This document shows, in pieces, positions 2,890 to 17,824 of a stretch of 64,000 nucleotides of DNA; position 1 is the stretch's first letter, and the number at the start of each line of letters is the position of its first letter. The stretch covers positions 17,613 to 81,612 of the forward strand of contig PQAL01000033.1 of assembly GCA_003105035.1 (NCBI GenBank), in the 5' to 3' direction. The stretch is from Anaerolineales bacterium. GTDB taxonomy: Bacteria > Chloroflexota > Anaerolineae > Anaerolineales > UBA4823. The position numbers and the translations under genes are program-made. The notes under the pieces are model-generated. The model made no database searches. It was not told the DNA's origin and was given only the letters and a program-made list of their open reading frames with translations.

Positions 2890-4248
2890 ATGTTAAAAAC
2901 CTACAAAATTATCGGCAGTTTGGTGCTCGTTGTCATGTTGGCATCGGCATGTGCATCAGCTACGCCAACACAGAGTATAGCTGAAACACCAACTGCAACC
3001 ACCGCAGCGGGAGCCGAAGCTACTGCCGTGCCCCCAACCCCAGCACCGACCGCAGCAGGCACCATCGATTGTGGTGGAGCAAAGTCGGGTGACACGATCA
3101 CCGTGATGTACCAGTGGACAGGAAATGAAGAATCCCTGTTCAACAACATCATGGCACCCTTCGTGGCAGCCTGTGGGGTTAAGCTCTCAGCTACATCCAC
3201 GCGTGACAGTGCCGTGTTGGATACCGCTGTCAAGAGCACCCCACCTGACGTGCTGTTCTGGCCCACTACTTCGCCACTCGCCTTGTATACCAGCCAGTTG
3301 CAAGATCTGACCTCCCTAGGAGTAGATCCCAGCAACTATGCGGACTACTGGCTCAAGCTCGGCACGGTCGACGGAAAGCTGTTGACCCTACCTGCCAAGA
3401 CCGATATCAAGACCATCATCTGGTATAACCCGGCGCAATTCGCAGCCAACGGCTATACCGTACCTACCACGCTGGATGAGCTTAACACGCTGGTTGATAA
3501 GATGGTTGCCAACGGCCAGGTGCCATGGGCCATGGGCTTTGAATCAGGACCAGCCACGGGCTGGACCGGTTCAGACTTCATCCAGGACATCCTGCTGGCT
3601 CAAAAGGGGCCGGATTACGTCAGCGGGATCATCAATGGCAGCGTCCCCTACAATGATCCAGGTGTGGTGGCAGCTTACCAGCAGTACGTCAAGTGGGCTT
3701 CTGATCCGAAGTATACGGTTGGTGGCGCCGACGGCACAGTCAATACCAACTTTGCTGACGCCTTGCTGCAGCCCTTCTCCGACCCACCCAAGGCTATGAT
3801 GGTCAAGCAGTCAGGTTTTGCGGGTGGTAACATCGCTGCGAAATATCCAAACCTGAAATACGGTACCGACTATGCCTTCTTTGGCTTCCCCGGCGCCCAA
3901 GGCGTGCAGGGAGGTGCTGACTATATGTACGCGTTCAACAACACGCCAGCCGTGATGGCTATGCTCAGCTACATCACAGGGCCAGTGGGAGCGGCCAACT
4001 GGGCTGCCACCGGCTTTGCGCTTGATCCAAATAAGCTGGCTTCAGGCAAATATCTCGACCCACAGCTGGCTGATATGGCCAAGATTCTGGAAAGTGCCAA
4101 GGGCTTCACCCCTGATATCGGTGATACCATTGGTGGAACCTTTGGTAACGCTGAATGGACGGCAATCATCAACACCGTTCAAGGAAAAGATATCCCGACT
4201 GAGCTAGCGACAGTAGCCGCCGCTCAAGCCGCATCACTCAAGAAATAA
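2890..4248 (+). CDS. ABC sugar transporter substrate-binding lipoprotein (CUT1)
   Basis: A 452-residue extracytoplasmic solute-binding protein, family 1 (MalE/alpha-glucoside type). It starts MLKTYKIIGSLVLVVMLASAC with a lipobox Cys at about residue 21, then a Thr/Pro/Ala-rich linker. Family features include the WTGNEESLFNNIMAPF opening strand-helix, the DVLFWP segment and the PAKTDIKTIIWYNPAQF hinge region. A strong site (GGAGGAAAG) precedes ATG 2890. Two Cys (CGGAKSG and AACGV) bracket the first lobe and may form a disulfide. The GH13 gene downstream suggests an alpha-glucoside or trehalose/maltose-like ligand; this is inferred. Confidence 0.9.
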   Translation: MLKTYKIIGSLVLVVMLASACASATPTQSIAETPTATTAAGAEATAVPPTPAPTAAGTIDCGGAKSGDTITVMYQWTGNEESLFNNIMAPFVAACGVKLSATSTRDSAVLDTAVKSTPPDVLFWPTTSPLALYTSQLQDLTSLGVDPSNYADYWLKLGTVDGKLLTLPAKTDIKTIIWYNPAQFAANGYTVPTTLDELNTLVDKMVANGQVPWAMGFESGPATGWTGSDFIQDILLAQKGPDYVSGIINGSVPYNDPGVVAAYQQYVKWASDPKYTVGGADGTVNTNFADALLQPFSDPPKAMMVKQSGFAGGNIAAKYPNLKYGTDYAFFGFPGAQGVQGGADYMYAFNNTPAVMAMLSYITGPVGAANWAATGFALDPNKLASGKYLDPQLADMAKILESAKGFTPDIGDTIGGTFGNAEWTAIINTVQGKDIPTELATVAAAQAASLKK

Positions 4249-4290: not shown

Positions 4291-4315
4291 CAATTTCATA
4301 GTGGGAGGGATGCTC

Positions 4316-5227
4316 ATGGTTCCGAAGATAATGAAACAAGGCGGCTTGGCTCCCCTGGTGTACCTCGCTCCAGCCATGCTGATCATGCTGATTTTCATCA
4401 TCTACCCGACTTTCAATACGGTGTACTTGAGCTTTCGGGACAAAAGCGGGGCGAATTCAGCGGCTGCGTCTTGCGTGGCGGGAGAGCCGTGCTGGGGTGT
4501 GTTTGAGAATTACCGCTACGCCCTCACCAACCAGTTGATGCTGACTGCGCTGCGTAACAACGCCCTATGGCTGGTCTTGATGGTGCCGGGTGTGGTCGCG
4601 GTGGGCTTATTATTCGCATTGCTGGCCGACCGCGTGAAGTACGAGGGGCTGGCTAAATCGATCATCTTCATGCCCATGGCGATTTCCTTTATCGGGGCGG
4701 GTGTTATCTGGCGCTTCGTTTACTACATCCAAACCGGCGGAGGCCCGCAGATTGGCTTGCTAAATGCCACCCTGGTCAAGCTGGGCTTCCAACCGGTGGC
4801 TTTTTTAAGCGATTCACGCATCAATAATTTTGCCTTGATGCTGGTGGGGGTATGGCTGTGGGCGGGGTTCTGCATGACCATCCTTTCTGCAGCGATCAAA
4901 GGTTTGCCATCCGAGGTGATCGAAGCCAGTCGCGTGGATGGTGCAAACGAGTGGAATGTGTTCTGGCGGGTGATGTTCCCCATGATCTTACCCACGATCG
5001 TGGTGGTCACCACTACCATGGTGATCAACGTCCTGAAGATATTCGATATCGTATTCGTCATGACCGGTGGGAATTTCGGCACCGAGGTTATCGCCAACCG
5101 CATGTTCCAGCTGATCGTTACTGATACAGGGAAATCGATGGCGATCGCAGTGCTGCTCATCATCCTGACGATACCGGTGATGATCTTCAACGTTCAGCGC
5201 TTCCGCGCTGAGGAGGCGGCCCGATGA
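4316..5227 (+). CDS. ABC sugar transporter permease, MalF-like
   Basis: A 303-residue inner-membrane permease starting MVPKIMKQGG at ATG 4316, with GGGAGG at 4303-4308 as ribosome site; upstream in-frame starts overlap that site. It has six predicted membrane spans. The EAA loop, which contacts the ATPase, lies at about residues 200-222 (EVIEASRVDGANEWNVFWRV). The first external loop contains two Cys (SCVAGEPCWG). Its stop overlaps the next start (ATGA at 5224). No ATPase gene is in the operon, so a shared MsmX/UgpC-type ATPase encoded elsewhere is presumed. Confidence 0.9.
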   Translation: MVPKIMKQGGLAPLVYLAPAMLIMLIFIIYPTFNTVYLSFRDKSGANSAAASCVAGEPCWGVFENYRYALTNQLMLTALRNNALWLVLMVPGVVAVGLLFALLADRVKYEGLAKSIIFMPMAISFIGAGVIWRFVYYIQTGGGPQIGLLNATLVKLGFQPVAFLSDSRINNFALMLVGVWLWAGFCMTILSAAIKGLPSEVIEASRVDGANEWNVFWRVMFPMILPTIVVVTTTMVINVLKIFDIVFVMTGGNFGTEVIANRMFQLIVTDTGKSMAIAVLLIILTIPVMIFNVQRFRAEEAAR

Positions 5228-6441
5228 ACCCACTTGCCCGCTTGAACAAGTTTTTCGGCCGTTTGCCACTTCACCTTATAGTTATCCTCATGATCGTCTT
5301 ATGGGTGATCCCCACATTGGGATTGTTTGTAACTTCCTTTCGACCTCGCCTGGCGGTGAGCGAGACAGGCTGGTGGACAGTTTTCTCACCCGTCAAAGCA
5401 ACCGGCCAGGGTGAATATGATACCTATTGTGCCTCCTGCCATGGGACGGACGGGAAGAAGATCCCCACCGCCGACCTGTCGGATCCTAAGGTATCCGGTC
5501 AATATACACGTTCGATCAACCTGCTAATTGATTTGCAAAAACCGGTCAATGGAGGCACTCACTTAGTTAACCCCACGCTGCCAACCAACGCAGCACAGGC
5601 ACAAGACATCCTGGCCCCCATCCTCACCTATATGCAAACGCTGTCAGGCAGCGAAGCAGCCAGCCAGGCACGCTTCACCCTGAGCAATTATGTGGATGCC
5701 CTGGTGGGCTATAAGGGAACTGCTGATTACCAGAGTGACTGTAAGAATAAGGTAGCCAGCACCCTGGCGGTGATGTCTTGCACCGCCAAGGACCTGCTTA
5801 ATCCAGCTGGCATGGGCCGGGCGTTTATCAACACCATCTGGGTGGCTATCCCATCCACATTATTGCCGGTATTTTTCGGGGCACTGGCGGCATACGGTTT
5901 CGCCTGGCTTGATTTTCGCGGCCGCATGTGGCTGTTCGCCTTGCTGGTGGGTTTGCAGATCATCCCCTTGCAAATGACTCTGGTGCCTATTGCCCGCCTG
6001 TATGTACGCTTAGGCTTGCAGGGCTCCTTTTTTGGAGTGTGGTTTTTCCATACCGGCTTCGGTCTGCCCTACGCCATATTCTTGTTGTGGAATTTCATGA
6101 AAAATTTGCCGCGCGAGATCTTTGAATCGGCTTACCTTGATGGAGCTTCGCATCTGACAGCTTTCAGGACGCTGGCGTTGCCACTGACCATGCCGGCCAT
6201 CGCTTCCCTGGCCATCTTCCAATTCCTGTGGATCTGGAACGATTTTTTGGTCGCCAAGGTCTTCCTCTCCAGCAAACCTGTGCTGACTGTTCAGATCACC
6301 AACCTGATCGACCCAATGGGCGGCAACTGGAATATCCTCACCGGGGCAGCCTTTCTCTCCTTCATCATTCCGATGGCGGTCTTTTTTACCTTCCAGAAAT
6401 TCTTCACGCGCGGCATGTTATCGGGTTCAGTGAAAGGTTAA
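5224..6441 (+). CDS. ABC sugar transporter permease, MalG-like, with inserted cytochrome-c-like segment
   Basis: A 405-residue permease; usual MalG-type proteins have about 275-300. TM1 is at residues 15-36 and the core resumes at [10 protein letters not shown] (151). The EAA loop is at about 298-320 ([20 protein letters not shown]). Between TM1 and the core, residues about 58-146 form an insert with the haem-c motif CASCHG (C69, C72, H73), preceded by GEYDTY and ending in a helix [10 protein letters not shown], the usual cytochrome c layout. A Met axial ligand in a GMP-type motif is absent; GGTHLV could offer His. A second short insert (about 161-195) carries two Cys. The reading frame is continuous. 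Transport role is from family; haem binding is inferred. Confidence 0.85.
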
Positions 6442-6449
6442 ACTCTGAC

Positions 6450-8111
6450 ATGCCGAACCAGCCCTGGTACATGAATGCAATTTTTTATGAAGCCCCGGTC
6501 AAGGCCATTTTGGACAGTAATGGCGATGGCAAGGGTGACCTGGCAGGGCTGGCTCAAAAATTAAATTACTTTGCCGACCTGGGGGTGGATTGCCTGTGGC
6601 TGAACCCGATCTATCCCTCCCCGCTCAAGGATGATGGCTATGATATCTCAGATTACTGTGCCATCCACCCCGATTACGGCAGCCTGGAGGATTTTAAACG
6701 CTTGCTAGAAGGGGTGCACAAGAAAGGGTTGCGCCTGATCCTCGACCTGGTGGTGAACCATACCTCCGACCAGCACCCATGGTTCCAGGCAGCCCGGTCA
6801 TCCAGAGCTTCACTCTACCGTGATTATTACGTCTGGTCTGATAATGACCAAAAGTATGCCAGTGCGCGCATTATCTTCGTGGATACGGAGAAATCCAACT
6901 GGACCTGGGACCCGCTGGCCCGACAATATTTCTGGCACCGTTTTTACTCGCACCAACCCGACCTGAACTTCGACAACCCTGCAGTACGCTATGAGATGCT
7001 GAGCGTAATGAAGTTCTGGCTTGACCTGGGGATTGATGGCTTCAGGGTGGACGCCGTGCCGTACCTGTTTGAGCGCGAGGGCACTTCGTGCGAGAACTTG
7101 CCGGAAACTCATGTATTCCTCAAGGAAATGCGTGCTTTTGTGGAAGCGAAATACCCCGGGCGCATCCTGTTGTGTGAAGCCAATCAATGGCCGCAGGATG
7201 TGCGAGCCTACTTCGGCAGGCTGAAAGCGGGTGAAGCGGGAGAGTTTCACATGGCATTCCATTTCCCGCTCATGCCGCGCCTGTTCATGGCGCTCCGCCA
7301 ACACGATGCTTCCCCCATTCGCTGGGTGCTGGATAACACACCCAGCATCCCAGACAGTGCCCAATGGTGCACCTTCTTACGCAACCATGACGAGTTGACC
7401 CTGGAAATGGTAACCGAGGAGGAGCGCCAGTGGATGTGGCGGGAGTACGCCCCGGACCCGCGCATGCGCCTGAACCTGGGTATCCGCCGCCGTTTGGCAC
7501 CCCTGCTGGATAACGACCGGCGGCAGATTGAGCTGGCCAACGCGCTGCTGTTCAGCCTGCCAGGTGCGCCGATCATTTATTACGGCGATGAAATTGGCAT
7601 GGGCGATAATATATGGCTACCCGACCGGGATGGCGTGCGTACCCCCATGCAGTGGGAGGATAGGCCCTCGGCAGGTTTCTCAAATTCGGCTCACCCCTAC
7701 TCCCCGCTGATCGCCCAACCCCCGTTTGACTACCATGTGGTTAATGTGGCTGCTCAGCGCAATGACCCAGACTCACTATGGTATGCCATGCAGGATCTGA
7801 TCAGGTTGCGGAAAAGCCACCCGGTGCTCGCGGCTGGCGAGCTGACCTGGATAGAGACGGGCAAGCAGGAGGTGTTGGCATTTGAGCGTCGGAATCAAGA
7901 GGAGCGATTGCTGGTGGTGCATAACCTGAGCCCTGAGGCACAGCATGTGGAGATGGATGTGGAGGGGGAAAGACAAGTGTGGAAAGACTTGCTGTCTGGA
8001 AAGGTTTATCCAGGTAGAGATGTTGTAGATCACCAGCCTGAGAAAAAACCACCCACGAGGGTAAGCCTAGGGTTAGAATTATCCCCGTGTCAGTACCTGT
8101 GGTTAAAGTAG
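6450..8111 (+). CDS. GH13 alpha-glucosidase / trehalose synthase-like (TreS family)
   Basis: A 553-residue cytoplasmic enzyme. ATG 6450 gives [20 protein letters not shown], the TreS-type start. The family block [14 protein letters not shown] follows. Catalytic residues are in place: nucleophile D201 (GFRVDAV), acid/base E243 (LLCEANQW) and D314 (FLRNHDELT). TreS interconverts maltose and trehalose; close relatives are plain alpha-glucosidases, and sequence alone does not separate them here. It lies 8 bases after the permease gene, so it probably acts on the imported sugar. A decayed relative of its 3' end lies at 18645-18875. Confidence 0.88.
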
Positions 8112-8825: not shown

Positions 8826-11147
8826 ATGTTATCAAGGAAAGGTTTCATAAAGATATCCATGGCTGGGGGGGCAGCTGCTTATGTTGCCAGCCAGGCAGGC
8901 TTTCGACACTTAGCCCGGGCAGCACAGTCGCCCCAAATTCCCCTGGCTGGCAGCGCCATCCCACAATTTGTCGATCCATTACCTGGGTTGGGTGACCTTG
9001 GGGCAATCGTCGCCGATTCAGGCCAGATTGAGCTGCAGATGACTGAGTTTCAAACCCAGGTTCTCCCTACGGGTATGCCTGCCACGTGGGTGTGGGGCTA
9101 CCTGCAATCTGGCCAAACCAGCCGCGCCACTTATCTTGGTCCGGTGATCCTTGCCACGCGCGACCAGCCGACTGAAGTGAAATATGTGAATAATCTGGGT
9201 TCAGCCGCAACGACCAACGTACTGGCATATAGATACTCCACCGACCAGACTTTACACTGGGCTGATCCATTAAATGGCGAAGCCAATATGTGGAATCATA
9301 TGGCCATGCCTCCTGCACCGGGTTCTGAAGGGGCTGCTAACTATTCGGGTCCGATCCCAGCAGTCGTGCATCTGCATGGTGGTGAAGTACCTCCCACGCT
9401 GGATGGCGGTCCGGATGCCTGGATGACCAGCGATGGCATATACAAGGGTCACAGTTTCTACAGCAAGGATGGTGCAACAGCATCCAATTATCATATATAT
9501 CGCTATCCTAATAGCCAGGAGGGTTCATCGATCTGGTTCCATGACCATACCCTGGGTGCTACACGCCTGAATGTTTTCTGCGGATTGGCAGGGGCCTACC
9601 TGATCCTTGATCCAACCAATGACCCAACGAACCTGCCGGAAGGGCCGATCCCATTAATCATCCAGGATCGCATGTTCGATACCAACGGGCAGTTGTTTTT
9701 CCCAGCTGATAGTGCGGGTGGTTTCCTATGGGCACTGAATCCGGAACACCCCTATTGGGTTCCTGAGTTCATTGGCGATGTGATCTGTGTGAATGGCAAA
9801 GCCTGGCCTTATCTGAATGTGGACCCAAAGCGATACACATTCCTGTTTTTGAATGGCTCGAATGCACGCACCTATGAAATGGCCCTGGTAGATCCTGTGT
9901 CAGGTAATCCGGGTCCAGCCCTATGGGTGATCGGCACCGATGGTGGTTACCTGGACAAGCCCGTACAGGTTGGGCCAGCGGCTGGGAAAAATAACAAGCT
10001 GGTGATCATGTCTGGCGAACGCTATACGGTGATCATCGATTTCGCTGGCTATCAGGCAGGGGTGGTCGGGCCCAATGGATTGGCATACTCGGGGACATGG
10101 TTACTGAAAAATTCTGCCAAGGCTCCATATCCGGCGGGTGTTGCCCCTAAAGGCGGAACAACAGGGCAAATCATGCAGTTCAGGGTTACTGGCACACCAG
10201 GTACGGATACCAGTTTCAATCCCGCCACACCCGTGGTTACCCTGCGGGGTGGTTTCGGACAAGGTCCTGCCCTGGTCAGGCTGGTTAATCCTGCTGCTGG
10301 TACAGTGGCTGCAGGAGTAACGGTAAACAAAACTCGCCAGCTGACCTTGAATGAGGTCATGGAAATGCCACAAAATGCAATAGACCCGGTGACTGGTTTG
10401 CTGACCGCCTACCCGGGTGGACCACTGGAGATACTGGTGAACAACACCAAGTGGAGCGGTGAGCGGATCACTGGTGTGGACGCAAATGGAATGTATATGA
10501 TGGAGCCGATTCCTGGTTTCACTTTAGATGGTACAGGAAAAAACTATCTTTCAGAGCTACCCAATGAAGGCGAAACCGAGGTGTGGGAGATCATCAACCT
10601 GACAGCGGACGCCCATCCGATCCATCTCCATCTTGTCCAATTCCAGCTAATGAACCGCCAGAATTTTGATAAGAGGAAATACTCCGTAGCCTATGCCGCA
10701 GCCTTCCCCGGTGGCGGCTATGACCCGATGACCCAGGCACCATACGCTCCTGGGGTTTACATACCCGGTTTTGGCCCACCCCTTCCCTATGGTACGGGTT
10801 CTGTGGTGGGTGGAAACCCGGATATAAATGCGAAGGATCCGAAAGGCAAACTGCTCTATCTGAAAGGCACACCCAACCTGCCCTTGCCACAGGAGACAGG
10901 CTGGAAGGATACCGTGATGGTACTTCCTGGTCAGGTGACCCGTTTTGTGGTTCGCTGGGCACCCACCGACCTGCCAGCCAGTACTCCGGCAGCAGATGCC
11001 TACTTCCCATTCGACCCGGATGGCGGGCATGGGTACGTCTGGCACTGCCATATCGTTGATCATGAAGATAATGAAATGATGCGCCCTGATGCGGTCACCC
11101 CAAATCCGAATGCTTCACGAAGTTATGTCCAGGGTGTGGATTACTAA
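8826..11147 (+). CDS. Multicopper oxidase, CotA/bilirubin-oxidase-like, exported
   Basis: A 773-residue protein with all four copper motifs: HLH at 182-184, HDH at 239-241, HPIHLH at 597-602 and HCHIVDHEDNEMM at 740-751. The N-terminus LSRKGFIKISMAGGAAAYVA looks like a Tat signal with RK in place of RR. Such enzymes oxidise phenols, metals or bilirubin with reduction of O2 to water, outside the membrane. It is longer than CotA (about 510), partly from loops between the cupredoxin domains. A strong GAGGAGG site precedes ATG 8826. It is monocistronic, ending at a hairpin at 11194. Confidence 0.92.
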   Translation: MLSRKGFIKISMAGGAAAYVASQAGFRHLARAAQSPQIPLAGSAIPQFVDPLPGLGDLGAIVADSGQIELQMTEFQTQVLPTGMPATWVWGYLQSGQTSRATYLGPVILATRDQPTEVKYVNNLGSAATTNVLAYRYSTDQTLHWADPLNGEANMWNHMAMPPAPGSEGAANYSGPIPAVVHLHGGEVPPTLDGGPDAWMTSDGIYKGHSFYSKDGATASNYHIYRYPNSQEGSSIWFHDHTLGATRLNVFCGLAGAYLILDPTNDPTNLPEGPIPLIIQDRMFDTNGQLFFPADSAGGFLWALNPEHPYWVPEFIGDVICVNGKAWPYLNVDPKRYTFLFLNGSNARTYEMALVDPVSGNPGPALWVIGTDGGYLDKPVQVGPAAGKNNKLVIMSGERYTVIIDFAGYQAGVVGPNGLAYSGTWLLKNSAKAPYPAGVAPKGGTTGQIMQFRVTGTPGTDTSFNPATPVVTLRGGFGQGPALVRLVNPAAGTVAAGVTVNKTRQLTLNEVMEMPQNAIDPVTGLLTAYPGGPLEILVNNTKWSGERITGVDANGMYMMEPIPGFTLDGTGKNYLSELPNEGETEVWEIINLTADAHPIHLHLVQFQLMNRQNFDKRKYSVAYAAAFPGGGYDPMTQAPYAPGVYIPGFGPPLPYGTGSVVGGNPDINAKDPKGKLLYLKGTPNLPLPQETGWKDTVMVLPGQVTRFVVRWAPTDLPASTPAADAYFPFDPDGGHGYVWHCHIVDHEDNEMMRPDAVTPNPNASRSYVQGVDY

Positions 11148-11731: not shown

Positions 11732-14700
11732 CTATTCTACAATCACCCAATCGCTATTGCTGCGGCCAAACACTTCCGGCGAGTACATCTCTTCCGCTTT
11801 GCTGGGCGGCACGACAAAAGTGCCAGGCGTGGTGGCGCGTGCGATATATGTGTATTCATATACCCCATCCCACAGCAGGGAGGTGAAAGCCTCGGCCCGG
11901 TCGTCGCGCAGGTTCTGGTGTTCATACCAGGTACCCCACCACCACCAGCCGTAGTGTAGCGTGGATGGATCCACCTGTGGTGTGCCGGGTGAAACAGCCA
12001 GTGCGGGATTGATGATCTCCAGGCCCGCTGGCAAGGGGTCGACCAGCGCCACGTGGTAGCGGCGGTTATCGGCCACCATCGTGATGCGCACCCGCACACG
12101 CGCTCCTGCCTTGATATGCCAGACACCATCACTGTCCTGGGAGACATCCTCAGGGTTGTCAACCGCCTCATAGCGGCGTTGGATGACAAAACCCATATCG
12201 AGAGCCTTCAGGTTGAGGTCCGTTGGGGCATAGCGTAATCCGAGCCGGTAATATAACCGCCCTGCTCCTTCCTTGCTGATGATCAAATCCTGAGTGCCGC
12301 CGCCTGAAGAGGTTTCGGAAAGCACATAGGTCATAGGGATGAGTGTCTCGTGAATTTCGGTGGTGCGGCCCACGAACTCGCTACTGCCTGTATACGTATC
12401 GCCCAGCCACACACGGGCCACAAAATCCGGGGTTTCTGCTTCAAAGGTGCGGAAATAGCGGTCCAAGGCCAGCAGGACAAAGACATTTTCCTGGGTGTTG
12501 CCCCAGCGCCCTTTGGTGCGATGCGCCAGCAGCCCATTGACCACCTTCGGGATCAGGTCACTCTGTGGATTGTCTTCCATCAGCGCATCCAGCAGGATGG
12601 CATCCGTGCGGCGGTCTGAACTGAGCAACAGGTAGGTCTGGTCGTCATATGCAGTGGTGAAGTTTGCCGCCCCGGCTGTCTCGACCACGTGATTATTCAC
12701 AAATAAGCGGATCTCATCGAGCTGTGAATTGTTATCGATGACCGGCCAGAGCCACCCGATGACTTCCATCGTCAGGTTATCGATCCCCACCTCGCTTAAC
12801 AGTCGCTGGGCTTTTTGGGCATCACGGTCATCTGCAAGGTTGCGCACGTACAGGGCATACGCGCTCAGGGCATGGCGCGTTTGCGCGCTATACCAGGATG
12901 GGTAATGGGTTTCGATTTCACGCAGGTAATTTACTGCGCCTTGCAGCATCTCTGCAGGTATCTCGAAGCCCTTGTCCCTGGCGCGTACCAGCGCATGTGC
13001 AACATGGATGGTGTTGAAGGGAATGGATTCAAAGCCCTGCCGCCAGTAGGGGAAACCCCCATCGTAATTTTGCATGCCCTGCAGGCGCTTGATGTCACGG
13101 TCGACCGCGGATTGCATCTCTTCAGGCGTGGGCAAACCATCGGCCTTGAAGGCGGTCAGCACGTCGCGCAGGGCCGCTACAGCCAGCATACGCGAGGCCA
13201 GTTGTTCCGAACACTCGAATGGATAAGAGGCCAGGTACAGCACGGCATCCGTGAGGGCCTGCAGCGCGGTGGAGGAGGTGTTGATCTCCAGGCCGCCATA
13301 TTGCGAGAAGACCCCGTTTGGATAAAGCACCGGCTGAGCGATCACGCCTTCATCGATCACACCGTAAGTTGCGAAGGCTTCAGTGCTAGCGGGAGTATAA
13401 ACCGGGAGCTCTACGACTGCTGCATCGGCGTAGGATCCAGAGATGGCAGCAATTTGAATGCGGGCTGTGCCTGCCATTTGCGTGCTGGCTGGAAAGCGCA
13501 CTTCCACGCGCTCATTCGCCGGGACCATCACGCGCAGGCCAGCCTGGGCAAGCTCAAGGTTGGTGGCCCGTGCAACCACTTCGACCAGCATGGGCTCATC
13601 AGTTTGATTCTGTAATACTACGGGCAGTTCGAACTTGTCGCCAAAGTTAAGGAAGCGCGGCGGTGAAGGGCGAACCATCAATGGCAGGCGAGCGGTGATG
13701 TTCGACTCGCCCAGGCCAAACTGGCGCCCTGTCTCATCCACCGCCACCACCATCACACGATAGCGCGTCAGGTTATCCGGAAGCTTGATCGACACACGTG
13801 CCTCGCCATTGGAGCCGGTGCGTACCGTTGGAGCGAATGTGGCCAATGGGTTGAAGTCTGAGCGCACAGTTATGGAAGATGGATGATCTTCCATAGACTT
13901 TGAGGCCTCCGCTGCAGGAGCAAGCGCAGCTTGCATGACCACTTGCGTGGGATATGCCGCGCCTGCATAATCCATCATGCGTTCTCCCTCCACGGCCAGG
14001 TTTTTAGCCGATGCCAGAAGGATGCTGCTGCGGCCGTAGACGCTCATCACCCCTGAGTCCCTCTCAGTATAAAAGACACCCAGCGGATCAGCCATCTGGT
14101 AGCTCGTCAGCGCCAGGATGGCTTCGTCAACCACCACCACTGCCAGTTCAGCATTGGCTACCGGCTCACCATGGGCATCCTTCAAGAGAATGGATAGTGT
14201 GGTTTCACCGCCAGGTTCGAGCTGGGTTTCATCAGGTGTCACCTGCAAGGCCAGCTTACGCTCCAGGGGTGGGATGCTCAGGTTCAGCTGTGCCGTGGCA
14301 AACGCCGGTCGGGGATCGACATCATGCAGAGTTTCTCCCGTTTCGCTGGTGCGCGGTGCAGAACCGACCAGGTCCACCTGGATGTTCAGGTTGGGGATAT
14401 ATTCTGCCTCGATCGGGATGGTTAATGTCGTGGAGCCATCCTCGATAGAGAAGCGGGTGGTATACACGAACCCACTCCGTCCGACGGTGAGCAGCCCTTC
14501 TGCTGGTGAAAACGGGGATTGCACCAGGATTTGAGCGGTATCACCCACTTGGTAGGTCTGCTTATCGGGTATCAATGTCACCTGTTCCTGTTCCACGTTT
14601 CGGGCGGGGGGTTGCTGGCCTCCACTGACCCAACGGGTGAAGCGTGTTTGATTTTTACGATTCAGTTCATCGCTGACCACCGCCGTGATTCGATAACTTC

Positions 14701-17700
14701 CACCGATGGGGGTCTTGAAGGAGCAGGAATCCGGCTCGAGTTTTGAGAGCATGGTGCACTTTTGGACATCCACTTCTACTTCGCCCCAGGTGCCATCCTG
14801 TAATTTCCATTCCAGGCGGGCAGCGGTGATCAACACCGGGCGCTCTGCCACTGGAATACCATCCAGGTCGGTCACGATGAAATCTACCTTGATCGGGATG
14901 CCTTTCTCGACGAAATAGCGCTCACTGCGCAGGCCGATGTAGAGATCCGCGGGGTGAACCAGCAAGGAGGTAGTGCTTGCCCAAGCCTGGCGATTTACGT
15001 CCATCACCGTGGCCTGCGCAATCACGCTCATCGGCTGCGGATTTTGCTCTGCCTGGCCTTCCTGGTTGAAGTCGAGCTGTATATAATGCTTACCCGATGC
15101 GTCCGTTTTTCCCGTAAATGTCTCGATCTTGGTTTCATTCTCTGAGGCGAAATAATCGTAACGATAGGTGTCCCACCACCATGGGTGCCATTCGCCAAAG
15201 ATAAAATCAGGCCAGTTGGGCGGGTTATAAGTGCTGGGCGAGGTACTCACCTCCCAGTTCACCTCGGCATCCGGTAGAGCGCCACCTGCATAATACTTGG
15301 CTTCAACCACGAGCGATGCATTCCCTCCCGCGAAATAAGGTCCCGCTGTCTCGCTGCGGGCCGAGATTTCAAATTCTGGCCGGCGAAATTCCTGGATCTG
15401 GAAGACATGGCTGTAGCCGGTCTCATCCAGCCCGCTCAAGCTTCCTTGAGCCGATAGATTCAAATAAGCCGTCCCCAGGTTCACCAAATTTGGTATCGTA
15501 AAGACGAAATCAAAACCTCCCAGGGCATTCACCTCTGCCTGTCCTGAGCCAATGGCATTGCCCTGCGAGTCTGTGAGAGTGTAGGACACCGAGCTAACTC
15601 CACTTCCCACCAGGCTAATATCTCCATTCTGTCTGCCGCCCACACGCCGCATCCAGCCTTTAATATGCAAATCTTCGCCAGGTTTGTACATCTGGCGGTC
15701 ATCAAATACATACCAGTGTAAAGAGTCACTAGGGGAGCTGGGTCCCCAGCCGTAATCCTCCCAGTAATTCATGGAGTGCAGCAGCATGGCGGTATCCTTG
15801 CCCCTGTTGGCAAGCAGGTACAATGCGCCATTCGGAATGGTGAAGCGTACCGTGCCGTCCGCGCCAGTGGTGAATTTGTCCGCGCTAAGGTGCGGTTGGA
15901 TGCTAACGCCTTCCAGGGGCGCACCGTCTTTGAGGTCGGTTGTCCAGACGAGCATATCGGCGTAATCGGTATAGGCATCAATCCCAATTTGGGTGACCTG
16001 TACCCAGGCGTTAATCGTCTGTGAATATCTCTGCCATTTCTCATTCTCAGTTTCGAAGAGCCCCTTGGGTGGCTCGATGATCACCACCAGGTGACCAAAG
16101 CCATTCTTCAAATAGGGTTGCAGCTCAATATTCACTTCCGACAACGTATCCACCGGAAGATCCAGGCTGATGGTCTTTTCGAATACCTTCATGCCCGGCA
16201 CCTGAACAGCTCTGTCCGATTGCTGCCATTCACGCAGATATTTCGTGAATGCCTCCCAATCACTGGGTTGGACGGAATAGATCCTGACGGCAAGCTTGCT
16301 GTAATTGATGGCATATACGGAAAATACAGGTTTCTTCTGGGCTGGGTCGAGGGTGACAAAGAACTGGTTGGTGCTGAACAAACGCGGCTCAGCTTTACCC
16401 ACTTTGATACTCACCTGCTGATCTTTACCCAAGGTCTGCCCAAAGATATCCTTGAGCTTGGCTGAAAGGGTGATGGTGTAAGTGGTCTGGCCCTTGGTCT
16501 CACCGCTGATGCTGATCATATCGCCATAGACATTGACGCTCATCCCCGGGATTTCAGGTTTGACGCGCAGCATCTCCTGGGTGAAAGATCCCGTGTCAAG
16601 CGGGTTATTGAAGCGGATGTAGAATGGCGTCAGGGGTGGGCACGGACTGTTGCCCCAGCTGCACCCATAATCCACGATTCTCAATGGCGCATAGGTAGAG
16701 AACCCAAAAGACTGCGCTGAGGCGGTGACCAGTGGACCTTCAGCTGAAGGTGTGCCTGGACCAATCGTGATCGAAATCGATGTTTCAGTAGGCAAGGGTT
16801 GCGTGGCTTTAAGGACTAGCCAGCGCCCTGCTTGCGCATTCTTGACATACTGGCTGACCTGCTTGTCTTTTTCGATCTCTGCTGAAGTGGCTAGGGATAG
16901 CTCTTGTTGTTCACTGCCCGCATAGAGCTGGATTGTCTCCAAGACCGCACCCGGGTTGATGCGTTGGTCGAAGCTGACGAAAATGAGCGGCTGCAATGGT
17001 TGCGGTGTGTTTTGCGGATACAGGGTGACTACTTTCGGTGCAGGGGTCGTGAAAGTCCACGTGACAGGTTCTGCAAGCACCCCGCCGGTGACAGATTTGG
17101 TCCCAGCGGGGATGGTGACGGTGAAGGATGTCGCTTTAGGCAGGCGGTCGATTTCTTCCGACTCGTACTCGAAGGTGAGCGTCTTTGCCCCGAGCCAGCG
17201 CCAAATGCCCGGTAGCTGTGGCTCAATTTGGACCGGGACAGATTCAGCCGCCAGGTCTTCGAGGGTCCCAAGCGGCACCATCGGTTGACTGAAGGTGATG
17301 GAAACAAATGGCGCTAAAGGGATTTCTCCCTCGGGGGCAAAGCGCAGCACTTTCAACGGCTCGGTCAGTTCAACCTCGGGCGTGGGTGACACTTCATCGG
17401 GTGGAAATTGATCCTGGATGGTCTTTCCCGGGCGGGGAGGCGGCAACAATTCAACCGGGTAGCTGAATTCGGTCTGCTCGCCTGTCGAAACCGGCAGGAC
17501 AGGCAGGCGTGCGAAAATCGTCTCGATCTCTTGAGCGGTAAGGGGTTCATATGTCGCTCTTGGGATGGGTACAGGTGTTTGATTTTGGGCCTGGCCCTGG
17601 CTGAGCCCAACCCGGATGTTGTAATCCGCTCCGGCGTTAGCAGAATTTCCTTCAACGGAGTCGGTCGTTCCCGTCTGGATCGTGAAAGGCATGGGTGTCT

Positions 17701-17824
17701 CCTCTCCTTTGTCAGTAAAGATTGGCAGGATGAGTTTCCAGGCAATTAGCACGAATGCGGGTATTATAACCAGCAGCGGGATGAAGTGCTTGTAGTTAAA
17801 TCGAGACTTTCGATCTGCGCTCAT
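11732..17824 (-). CDS. Bacterial alpha-2-macroglobulin family protein
   Basis: A 2030-residue envelope protein. One N-terminal anchor (FIPLLVIIPAFVLIAWKLIL, about residues 14-33) is followed by an Ig-like/MG-domain array, a bait-like stretch and the thioester domain with C1538-S-E-Q1541 (FECSEQLASR). Bacterial members trap attacking proteases through a Cys-Gln thioester and often partner with PBP1C; no pbpC gene is next to it here. It appears intact, with an alpha/alpha toroid region after the thioester and a receptor-like C-terminal domain. The start MSADRKSRFNYKH is the first Met before the anchor. It is monocistronic. Confidence 0.92.
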   Translation of the reverse strand: MSADRKSRFNYKHFIPLLVIIPAFVLIAWKLILPIFTDKGEETPMPFTIQTGTTDSVEGNSANAGADYNIRVGLSQGQAQNQTPVPIPRATYEPLTAQEIETIFARLPVLPVSTGEQTEFSYPVELLPPPRPGKTIQDQFPPDEVSPTPEVELTEPLKVLRFAPEGEIPLAPFVSITFSQPMVPLGTLEDLAAESVPVQIEPQLPGIWRWLGAKTLTFEYESEEIDRLPKATSFTVTIPAGTKSVTGGVLAEPVTWTFTTPAPKVVTLYPQNTPQPLQPLIFVSFDQRINPGAVLETIQLYAGSEQQELSLATSAEIEKDKQVSQYVKNAQAGRWLVLKATQPLPTETSISITIGPGTPSAEGPLVTASAQSFGFSTYAPLRIVDYGCSWGNSPCPPLTPFYIRFNNPLDTGSFTQEMLRVKPEIPGMSVNVYGDMISISGETKGQTTYTITLSAKLKDIFGQTLGKDQQVSIKVGKAEPRLFSTNQFFVTLDPAQKKPVFSVYAINYSKLAVRIYSVQPSDWEAFTKYLREWQQSDRAVQVPGMKVFEKTISLDLPVDTLSEVNIELQPYLKNGFGHLVVIIEPPKGLFETENEKWQRYSQTINAWVQVTQIGIDAYTDYADMLVWTTDLKDGAPLEGVSIQPHLSADKFTTGADGTVRFTIPNGALYLLANRGKDTAMLLHSMNYWEDYGWGPSSPSDSLHWYVFDDRQMYKPGEDLHIKGWMRRVGGRQNGDISLVGSGVSSVSYTLTDSQGNAIGSGQAEVNALGGFDFVFTIPNLVNLGTAYLNLSAQGSLSGLDETGYSHVFQIQEFRRPEFEISARSETAGPYFAGGNASLVVEAKYYAGGALPDAEVNWEVSTSPSTYNPPNWPDFIFGEWHPWWWDTYRYDYFASENETKIETFTGKTDASGKHYIQLDFNQEGQAEQNPQPMSVIAQATVMDVNRQAWASTTSLLVHPADLYIGLRSERYFVEKGIPIKVDFIVTDLDGIPVAERPVLITAARLEWKLQDGTWGEVEVDVQKCTMLSKLEPDSCSFKTPIGGSYRITAVVSDELNRKNQTRFTRWVSGGQQPPARNVEQEQVTLIPDKQTYQVGDTAQILVQSPFSPAEGLLTVGRSGFVYTTRFSIEDGSTTLTIPIEAEYIPNLNIQVDLVGSAPRTSETGETLHDVDPRPAFATAQLNLSIPPLERKLALQVTPDETQLEPGGETTLSILLKDAHGEPVANAELAVVVVDEAILALTSYQMADPLGVFYTERDSGVMSVYGRSSILLASAKNLAVEGERMMDYAGAAYPTQVVMQAALAPAAEASKSMEDHPSSITVRSDFNPLATFAPTVRTGSNGEARVSIKLPDNLTRYRVMVVAVDETGRQFGLGESNITARLPLMVRPSPPRFLNFGDKFELPVVLQNQTDEPMLVEVVARATNLELAQAGLRVMVPANERVEVRFPASTQMAGTARIQIAAISGSYADAAVVELPVYTPASTEAFATYGVIDEGVIAQPVLYPNGVFSQYGGLEINTSSTALQALTDAVLYLASYPFECSEQLASRMLAVAALRDVLTAFKADGLPTPEEMQSAVDRDIKRLQGMQNYDGGFPYWRQGFESIPFNTIHVAHALVRARDKGFEIPAEMLQGAVNYLREIETHYPSWYSAQTRHALSAYALYVRNLADDRDAQKAQRLLSEVGIDNLTMEVIGWLWPVIDNNSQLDEIRLFVNNHVVETAGAANFTTAYDDQTYLLLSSDRRTDAILLDALMEDNPQSDLIPKVVNGLLAHRTKGRWGNTQENVFVLLALDRYFRTFEAETPDFVARVWLGDTYTGSSEFVGRTTEIHETLIPMTYVLSETSSGGGTQDLIISKEGAGRLYYRLGLRYAPTDLNLKALDMGFVIQRRYEAVDNPEDVSQDSDGVWHIKAGARVRVRITMVADNRRYHVALVDPLPAGLEIINPALAVSPGTPQVDPSTLHYGWWWWGTWYEHQNLRDDRAEAFTSLLWDGVYEYTYIARATTPGTFVVPPSKAEEMYSPEVFGRSNSDWVIVE

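What the first reader, a model, noticed from the sequence alone, without database searches (positions are those of the whole stretch)
5224..6441. Sugar ABC permease with a cytochrome-c-like CxxCH segment in its first external loop
The reading frame of a normal MalG-type permease contains an extra segment of about 90 residues after TM1. It carries Y[12 protein letters not shown] (C69, C72, H73) and ends in a cytochrome-c-like terminal helix. TM1, the EAA loop and the remaining spans are intact and in frame. Cytochrome c folded in this loop would face the outside, where haem c is attached and where the binding protein docks. This would be a transporter with a built-in redox or haem sensor. Family knowledge gives the permease layout; haem binding and function are inference.
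Basis: partly seen in the sequence, partly recalled or inferred. Interest (0 to 1): 0.87.

Follow-up and report, generated by a model that had tools for sequence, protein, structure and literature searches.

The report
Sugar importer carrying a cytochrome c
A membrane protein that helps pump sugar into Anaerolineae bacteria carries a complete cytochrome c (a haem-holding electron-transfer domain) on its outer face; the arrangement is conserved in dozens of species, so sugar uptake there may be wired to the cell's redox state, but this has not been tested.

Summary
ORF 5224-6441 encodes a MalG-type sugar permease with a class I cytochrome c domain (residues ~57-145) in its first external loop, followed by an extended linker with an invariant Cys pair. 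It is not a misassembly or chance. I found 89 distinct cytochrome-bearing relatives, all in Chloroflexota (Anaerolineae), including the cultured Levilinea, Pelolinea and Thermanaerothrix. CxxCH is kept in 89/89, a second His (H113) in 87/89, the Cys pair in 89/89. The operon (binding protein, MalF, MalG-cyt, usually a GH13 enzyme) is conserved. The window's own genome has a Ccm haem-attachment system, as do about 53 of 56 such genomes tested. The cytochrome was gained once and lost at least two or three times; all nine cytochrome-less ingroup genomes lack any detectable CBB3-type cytochrome c. Structure prediction gives a cytochrome c fold between TM1 and TM2 of a MalG/SugB fold. Most likely haem c is attached outside, near the binding-protein docking face, and acts as a redox switch on alpha-glucoside import. 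The anatomy is near certain; the switch is inference. No paper describing such a permease was found. New variant of a known kind, interest 0.73.

The parts
2890..4248 (+). Substrate-binding lipoprotein (sugar SBP) of the same operon; C61 and C95 invariant
   Evidence: ORF; weak matches to sugar SBP models (NF040930, TIGR03851); SBP found upstream of the permease in most relatives; C61/C95 in 70/70 relatives compared
4301..5227 (+). MalF-type partner permease
   Evidence: PF00528 5.5e-15, best NCBIfam GlcT; directly upstream and overlapping by 4 bases
4472..4492 (+). Cys pair C-x5-C-W-G in the first external loop of the MalF-type partner
   Evidence: Present in 99 of 100 partners in cytochrome operons and 9 of 9 cytochrome-less ingroup relatives, absent in 15 of 15 outgroup partners
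5224..6441 (+). MalG-type permease with inserted cytochrome c domain (405 aa)
   Evidence: structure; fold match SugB/MalG
5269..5334 (+). TM1 (residues 16-37), preceded by a positively charged N-terminus
   Evidence: AF2 model; outward orientation of the following loop inferred from MalG topology
5392..5658 (+). Cytochrome c domain (residues 57-145)
   Evidence: PF00034/PF13442, PDB profile hit CcoP 4e-6, structural alignment to cytochromes c
5428..5442 (+). Haem-attachment motif C69-A-S-C72-H73
   Evidence: 89/89 insert-bearing relatives
5560..5562 (+). H113, proposed distal haem ligand (in place of the usual Met)
   Evidence: 87/89 relatives; exceptions L145 (GQMP, classical Met) and L093 (shifted His)
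5671..5802 (+). Linker module after the cytochrome with invariant C173 and C186 (probable disulfide)
   Evidence: 89/89 relatives; also kept in relatives that lack the cytochrome
5809..6438 (+). Permease core, TM2 onwards, with EAA-type loop ESAYLDGA
   Evidence: PF00528, AF2
6450..8111 (+). GH13 enzyme of the operon, trehalose-synthase-like (TreS)
   Evidence: TIGR02456 820 bits against a cut-off of 678; homologue downstream of most relatives

Best explanation
This is the MalG subunit of an alpha-glucoside (maltose/trehalose-type) ABC importer in which a class I cytochrome c domain sits in the TM1-TM2 loop on the outer face. Shown by computation: domain identity, conservation, operon context, and a Ccm (System I) haem-attachment system in the genome. 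Inferred: Ccm attaches haem c to C69/C72 with H73 and H113 as axial ligands. Inferred mechanism: the haem exchanges electrons with respiratory or other extracytoplasmic redox partners, and its oxidation state changes how the binding protein docks on MalG or how the gate opens, so that sugar import follows the availability of electron acceptors. Identity as a haem-bearing importer subunit is about 0.9 likely; the redox-switch mechanism about 0.45.
For: Insert scores as cytochrome c (PF13442 in 66/66 members) and matches CcoP in the PDB by profile (4e-6). AF2 insert model pLDDT 89; every row of the structural alignment list is a c-type cytochrome; full model matches SugB/MalG. CxxCH 89/89, H113 87/89, Cys pair 89/89 at about 45% identity of the inserts, i.e. 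strong purifying selection on haem-binding residues. CcmE/F/A/B/C/H genes in the window's genome on C13; about 53/56 cytochrome-bearing genomes have PF01578. The 9 cytochrome-less ingroup genomes have no PF13442 cytochrome at all, whereas 44/57 bearing genomes have others besides the permease: the domain tends to go where the respiratory class I cytochromes go. MalE N-lobe interacts mainly with MalG (cited in PMC3150292), so the loop lies near the docking face.
Against: No haem, redox potential or transport measurement exists. 13 bearing genomes appear to have no other CBB3-type cytochrome, so a class I partner is not obligatory; Pelolinea keeps the domain beside one 5-haem cytochrome in the 69% of its genome that was read. 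The correlation with other cytochromes rests on few independent losses (at least 2-3). No electron partner is encoded in the operon. AF2 was run without haem, the binding protein or MalF, so contact with the docking face is not shown.
Confidence: 0.5

Rival explanations
1. Haem-bearing electron relay: the domain is a membrane-tethered electron carrier that wires the importer or its binding protein to another redox protein (for example extracellular electron transfer or periplasmic sugar oxidation) and does not regulate transport; the permease is only the anchor.
For: Class I cytochromes c usually transfer electrons; in Chloroflexota cytochrome c domains are found fused to other proteins such as NirK (PMC8756737). 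Absence of other class I cytochromes in the genomes that lost it fits a carrier role.
Against: No redox enzyme is conserved in the operon; a carrier has no need to sit inside one particular sugar permease in every species; 13 bearing genomes lack other CBB3-type cytochromes.
Confidence: 0.2
2. Haem-based gas or ligand sensor: the His/His (or His/open) haem binds O2, NO or a similar ligand and so controls import.
For: Distal His replaces the usual Met in 87/89, as in some ligand-responsive c-type haems (own knowledge).
Against: H113 is nearly invariant, suggesting a stably six-coordinate haem; no signalling domain or partner.
Confidence: 0.13
3. Structural domain: the cytochrome is a folded spacer or docking platform for the binding protein; haem only stabilises it and redox change is irrelevant.
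For: The sister MalG family has a different, non-haem insert in the same loop, so this loop tolerates domains and may need a platform. The paired Cys modules of MalF and MalG persist without the cytochrome.
Against: Relatives work without it (three lineages lost it), and its loss tracks absence of class I cytochromes. Haem-ligand residues are more constrained than most of the rest of the domain.
Confidence: 0.15
4. Assembly artefact, frameshift fusion or chance CxxCH.
For: None found.
Against: 89 distinct proteins from independent assemblies, including the cultured isolates L. saccharolytica, P. submarina (complete genome) and T. daxensis, share the full architecture at 50-69% identity.
Confidence: 0.01

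Closest known systems
MalG / SugB subunits of type I sugar ABC importers (MalFGK2-MalE, LpqY-SugABC)
   Same: PF00528 core, EAA-type loop, fold (best structure hits SugB of LpqY-SugABC and MalG), operon with SBP and MalF-type partner
   Different: Known members have no cytochrome in the TM1-TM2 loop; here about 120 extra residues carry a class I cytochrome c and a Cys pair
Class I cytochromes c of CBB3/CcoP type (PF13442; cytochrome c6, OmcF)
   Same: CxxCH motif in the first helix, terminal helix, profile and fold matches
   Different: Inserted in a sugar permease; the distal Met of the GQMP motif is replaced by His in 87/89; no sequence-identifiable redox partner in the operon
Sister Anaerolineae MalG family with another loop insert (e.g. 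L022, L036)
   Same: Same permease family, insert at the same loop
   Different: About 85 unrelated residues without CxxCH; the MalF partner lacks the Cys pair
CydDC, an ABC transporter that binds haem (own knowledge, not checked here)
   Same: ABC transporter whose transmembrane part binds haem
   Different: Non-covalent haem, no cytochrome c domain, exporter fold

Membership tests
MalG-type permease (PF00528, carbohydrate type I importer) | BPD_transp_1 domain above gathering score | tested here: met
   45.9 bits against 26.4
MalG-type permease (PF00528, carbohydrate type I importer) | EAA coupling loop in frame | tested here: met
   [20 protein letters not shown], conserved across 66 relatives
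MalG-type permease (PF00528, carbohydrate type I importer) | MalG/SugB fold | tested here: met
   Foldseek 8hps_B (SugB) 1.3e-7, 3puv_G (MalG) 1.1e-6
MalG-type permease (PF00528, carbohydrate type I importer) | Partner permease and binding protein encoded alongside | tested here: met
MalG-type permease (PF00528, carbohydrate type I importer) | Works with a MalK-type ATPase | not tested
   No ATPase seen in the operon; genome not searched for a shared MsmK/MalK
Class I cytochrome c | CxxCH haem-attachment motif near the domain's N-terminus | tested here: met
   C69-C72-H73; 89/89 relatives
Class I cytochrome c | Profile membership (PF00034 / PF13442) | tested here: met
   Window insert PF00034 23.3 bits > 21.3; 66/66 members match PF13442 and 44/66 PF00034 at E <= 0.01
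Class I cytochrome c | Cytochrome c fold | tested here: met
   pLDDT 89; all listed structural matches are c-type cytochromes over residues 57-145, best Z 6.3, rmsd 2.9-3.4; single-pair scores are modest and Foldseek E-values weak
Class I cytochrome c | Met as distal haem ligand | tested here: not met
   His at this position in 87/89, Met only in L145; the following Met114 occurs in 43/89 only. His-ligated members exist, so this lowers the subtype claim, not the fold
Class I cytochrome c | Covalent haem in the mature protein | not testable with these tools
   Ccm system present in genome, but haem itself needs the bench

The most novel reading that the evidence does not exclude
An ABC importer gated by a built-in covalent haem: a sugar transporter whose uptake rate is set by the redox state of a cytochrome c inside its own permease subunit, coupling carbon intake directly to respiratory electron flow without a kinase or transcription factor.
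Probability: 0.4. Interest if true: 0.9.

Novelty: new variant of a known kind. Interest (0 to 1): 0.73.

Why it matters
ABC importers are regulated by binding-protein affinity, EIIA-Glc, or regulatory domains on the ATPase. A conserved cytochrome c inside the permease would be a direct physical link between electron transport and nutrient import, and would suggest how Anaerolineae, abundant in sludge and sediments and often described as fermenters although many carry respiratory genes, match sugar uptake to electron acceptors. Cultured strains with the protein exist, so it can be tested.

Tried and rejected
Chance motif or misassembly: rejected by 89 relatives. Search outside the class: an A4 search of 400 genomes of the phylum gave only members of the window's order, and all 80 loci returned from the 85,000-species collection are Chloroflexota (53 weaker ones were not returned). 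So no sign of it elsewhere, but the seeds included the linker and an independent cytochrome fusion elsewhere could be missed. Idea that the cytochrome was simply lost with Ccm: not sufficient, 5 of 9 cytochrome-less genomes still have Ccm, two of them beside a 5-haem cytochrome. MalG-only tree could not reject a single clade of cytochrome-bearing rows (p-AU 0.17); adding MalF rejected it. Outgroup binding proteins could not be fetched, so whether C61/C95 of the SBP are special to this clade is unknown. Foldseek alone gave no E < 0.001 for the insert. Long ~850-aa frames seen at the SBP place in L039 and L046 gave no Pfam match and are probably antisense or readthrough frames. Paper searches found no description, within an open-access library only.

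Full report
Observation. ORF 5224-6441 (+) encodes 405 residues without interruption. Residues 216-396 are a PF00528 permease domain. The first external loop contains [14 protein letters not shown] (C69, C72, H73), and the insert taken alone passes the PF00034 cytochrome c cut-off. The match in the intact protein is weaker (PF13442 20.2 bits, below its cut-off of 27), so a routine annotation of this one sequence could miss it. The insert is about 120 residues longer than the loop of insert-free relatives (405 against 285 aa, L019): a cytochrome of about 88 residues plus a linker with C173 and C186. These four Cys are the only ones in the protein.

Relatives. A search of 61 related genomes gave 12 full-length matches with the insert. 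A class search (26 of 396 genomes give near-full-length matches) and a scan of 85,000 species raised this to 89 distinct cytochrome-bearing proteins, from MAGs and from the cultured strains Levilinea saccharolytica, Pelolinea submarina and Thermanaerothrix daxensis. CxxCH is present in all 89, and no relative was found with the insert but without the motif. H113 is present in 87 of 89, and C173/C186 in all. The residue after H113 is Met in only 43. L145 has the classical GQMP instead of GQPH, and the CcoP alignment places family NGQPH against NGQMP. I therefore propose H113 as distal ligand in place of Met; this is inference from alignment.

Fold. AF2 with 66 relatives gave the insert pLDDT 89 and the full protein pLDDT 85, pTM 0.74. 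Structural alignment lists only c-type cytochromes over residues 57-145, best Z 6.3. These Z values are modest and Foldseek alone was weak, but with the profile hit to CcoP (4e-6) and 66/66 matches to PF13442 the assignment is secure. The full model is closest to SugB of the mycobacterial trehalose importer and to MalG. Haem, MalF and the binding protein were not in the model, so contacts are not shown.

Operon and partners. Binding protein, MalF-type permease, MalG-cyt and, in most loci with enough flank, a GH13 enzyme lie together; the window's GH13 scores as trehalose synthase (TIGR02456). In several relatives a trehalase/GH63-like gene is also present. So alpha-glucosides such as trehalose or maltose are the likely cargo (inference). 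The MalF partner has its own Cys pair, C-x5-C-W-G in the window, in its first external loop: 99 of 100 partners in cytochrome operons, 9 of 9 in cytochrome-less ingroup relatives, 0 of 15 in outgroups. Both permeases therefore gained paired-Cys modules about when the cytochrome arrived, but the Cys pairs outlive it.

Gain and loss. On the MalG core tree the bearing clade is one supported group, with nine cytochrome-less members inside it. MalG alone cannot reject that all bearing rows form one clade (p-AU 0.17), but MalF plus MalG does (p-AU 6e-107, 30 rows). The simplest reading is one gain and at least two or three losses: L076/L077, L154, and a six-row clade. This assumes that the two neighbouring genes share a history.

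Haem supply. The window's genome has CcmE, CcmF, CcmH, a two-haem class I cytochrome, ABC and membrane genes in the places of CcmA and CcmB, and CcmC at one locus (contig C13). PF01578 was found in 37 of 38 and 17 of 19 bearing genomes (one genome was counted twice, so about 53 of 56). The misses are G113 (73% complete), G479 and G486. Among the nine cytochrome-less relatives five have it.

Link to other cytochromes. None of the nine cytochrome-less ingroup genomes has any PF13442 match, whereas 44 of 57 bearing genomes have at least two, one of which should be the permease (Fisher p 1e-5, not corrected for shared descent). The remaining 13 have a single match; for Pelolinea this is the permease itself, for the others it is presumed. 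So the domain is lost only where class I respiratory cytochromes are absent, but absence does not force loss. Loss is also not explained by loss of Ccm alone, since two cytochrome-less genomes keep Ccm next to a 5-haem cytochrome. L. saccharolytica, which carries the protein, encodes alternative complex III, an A-family oxidase, bd oxidase, NirS and NrfA (PMC4653796).

Mechanism. The best-supported reading is a haem-c-bearing importer subunit in which the haem reports or exchanges electrons with the extracytoplasmic redox pool and thereby modulates import. Shown: domain, conservation, location in sequence, haem-attachment genes, correlation with other cytochromes. Inferred: haem occupancy, ligands, nearness to the binding protein (MalE N-lobe interacts mainly with MalG, cited in PMC3150292), and control of transport. 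Relay, gas-sensor and structural readings remain open.

Novelty. No description was found in the open-access library. Both parts are known families; the combination, its conservation and its loss pattern appear undescribed. I rate it a new variant of a known kind.

Noticed in passing
L020, L022, L023, L025, L026, L028-L030, L032-L034, L036 (Anaerolineae relatives): A sister MalG family has a different conserved insert of about 85 residues (PHREW...FEEFREG...WVGNKRLG) in the same TM1-TM2 loop, without CxxCH; this loop seems to be an insertion hotspot. Function unknown.
   Followed up: partly
window 4472-4492 and relatives L078-L157: The MalF-type partner has a clade-specific Cys pair (C-x5-C-W-G here) in its first external loop, matching the Cys pair in MalG; both are absent in outgroups and kept after cytochrome loss.
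   Followed up: partly
L081 and L082 (Levilinea saccharolytica, NZ_LGCM01000045.1): The cytochrome-permease operon occurs twice on one contig with an identical insert region, in opposite orientation near the contig ends: recent duplication or assembly repeat.
   Followed up: no
window 8826-11147 (+): Multicopper oxidase (773 aa, twin-arginine-like start, PhsA/CueO-like) directly downstream of the operon.
   Followed up: no
window 11732-17824 (-): 2030-aa bacterial alpha-2-macroglobulin (MG2, bait region, A2M, MG10 domains).
   Followed up: no
L166 11525-12643, L168 6237-7364, L231 (Pelolinea): A 5-haem exported cytochrome (Cytochrome_C7/MtrC-like in L166) sits beside the Ccm genes in two cytochrome-less relatives; a 5-haem ORF of the same length also occurs in Pelolinea.
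   Followed up: partly
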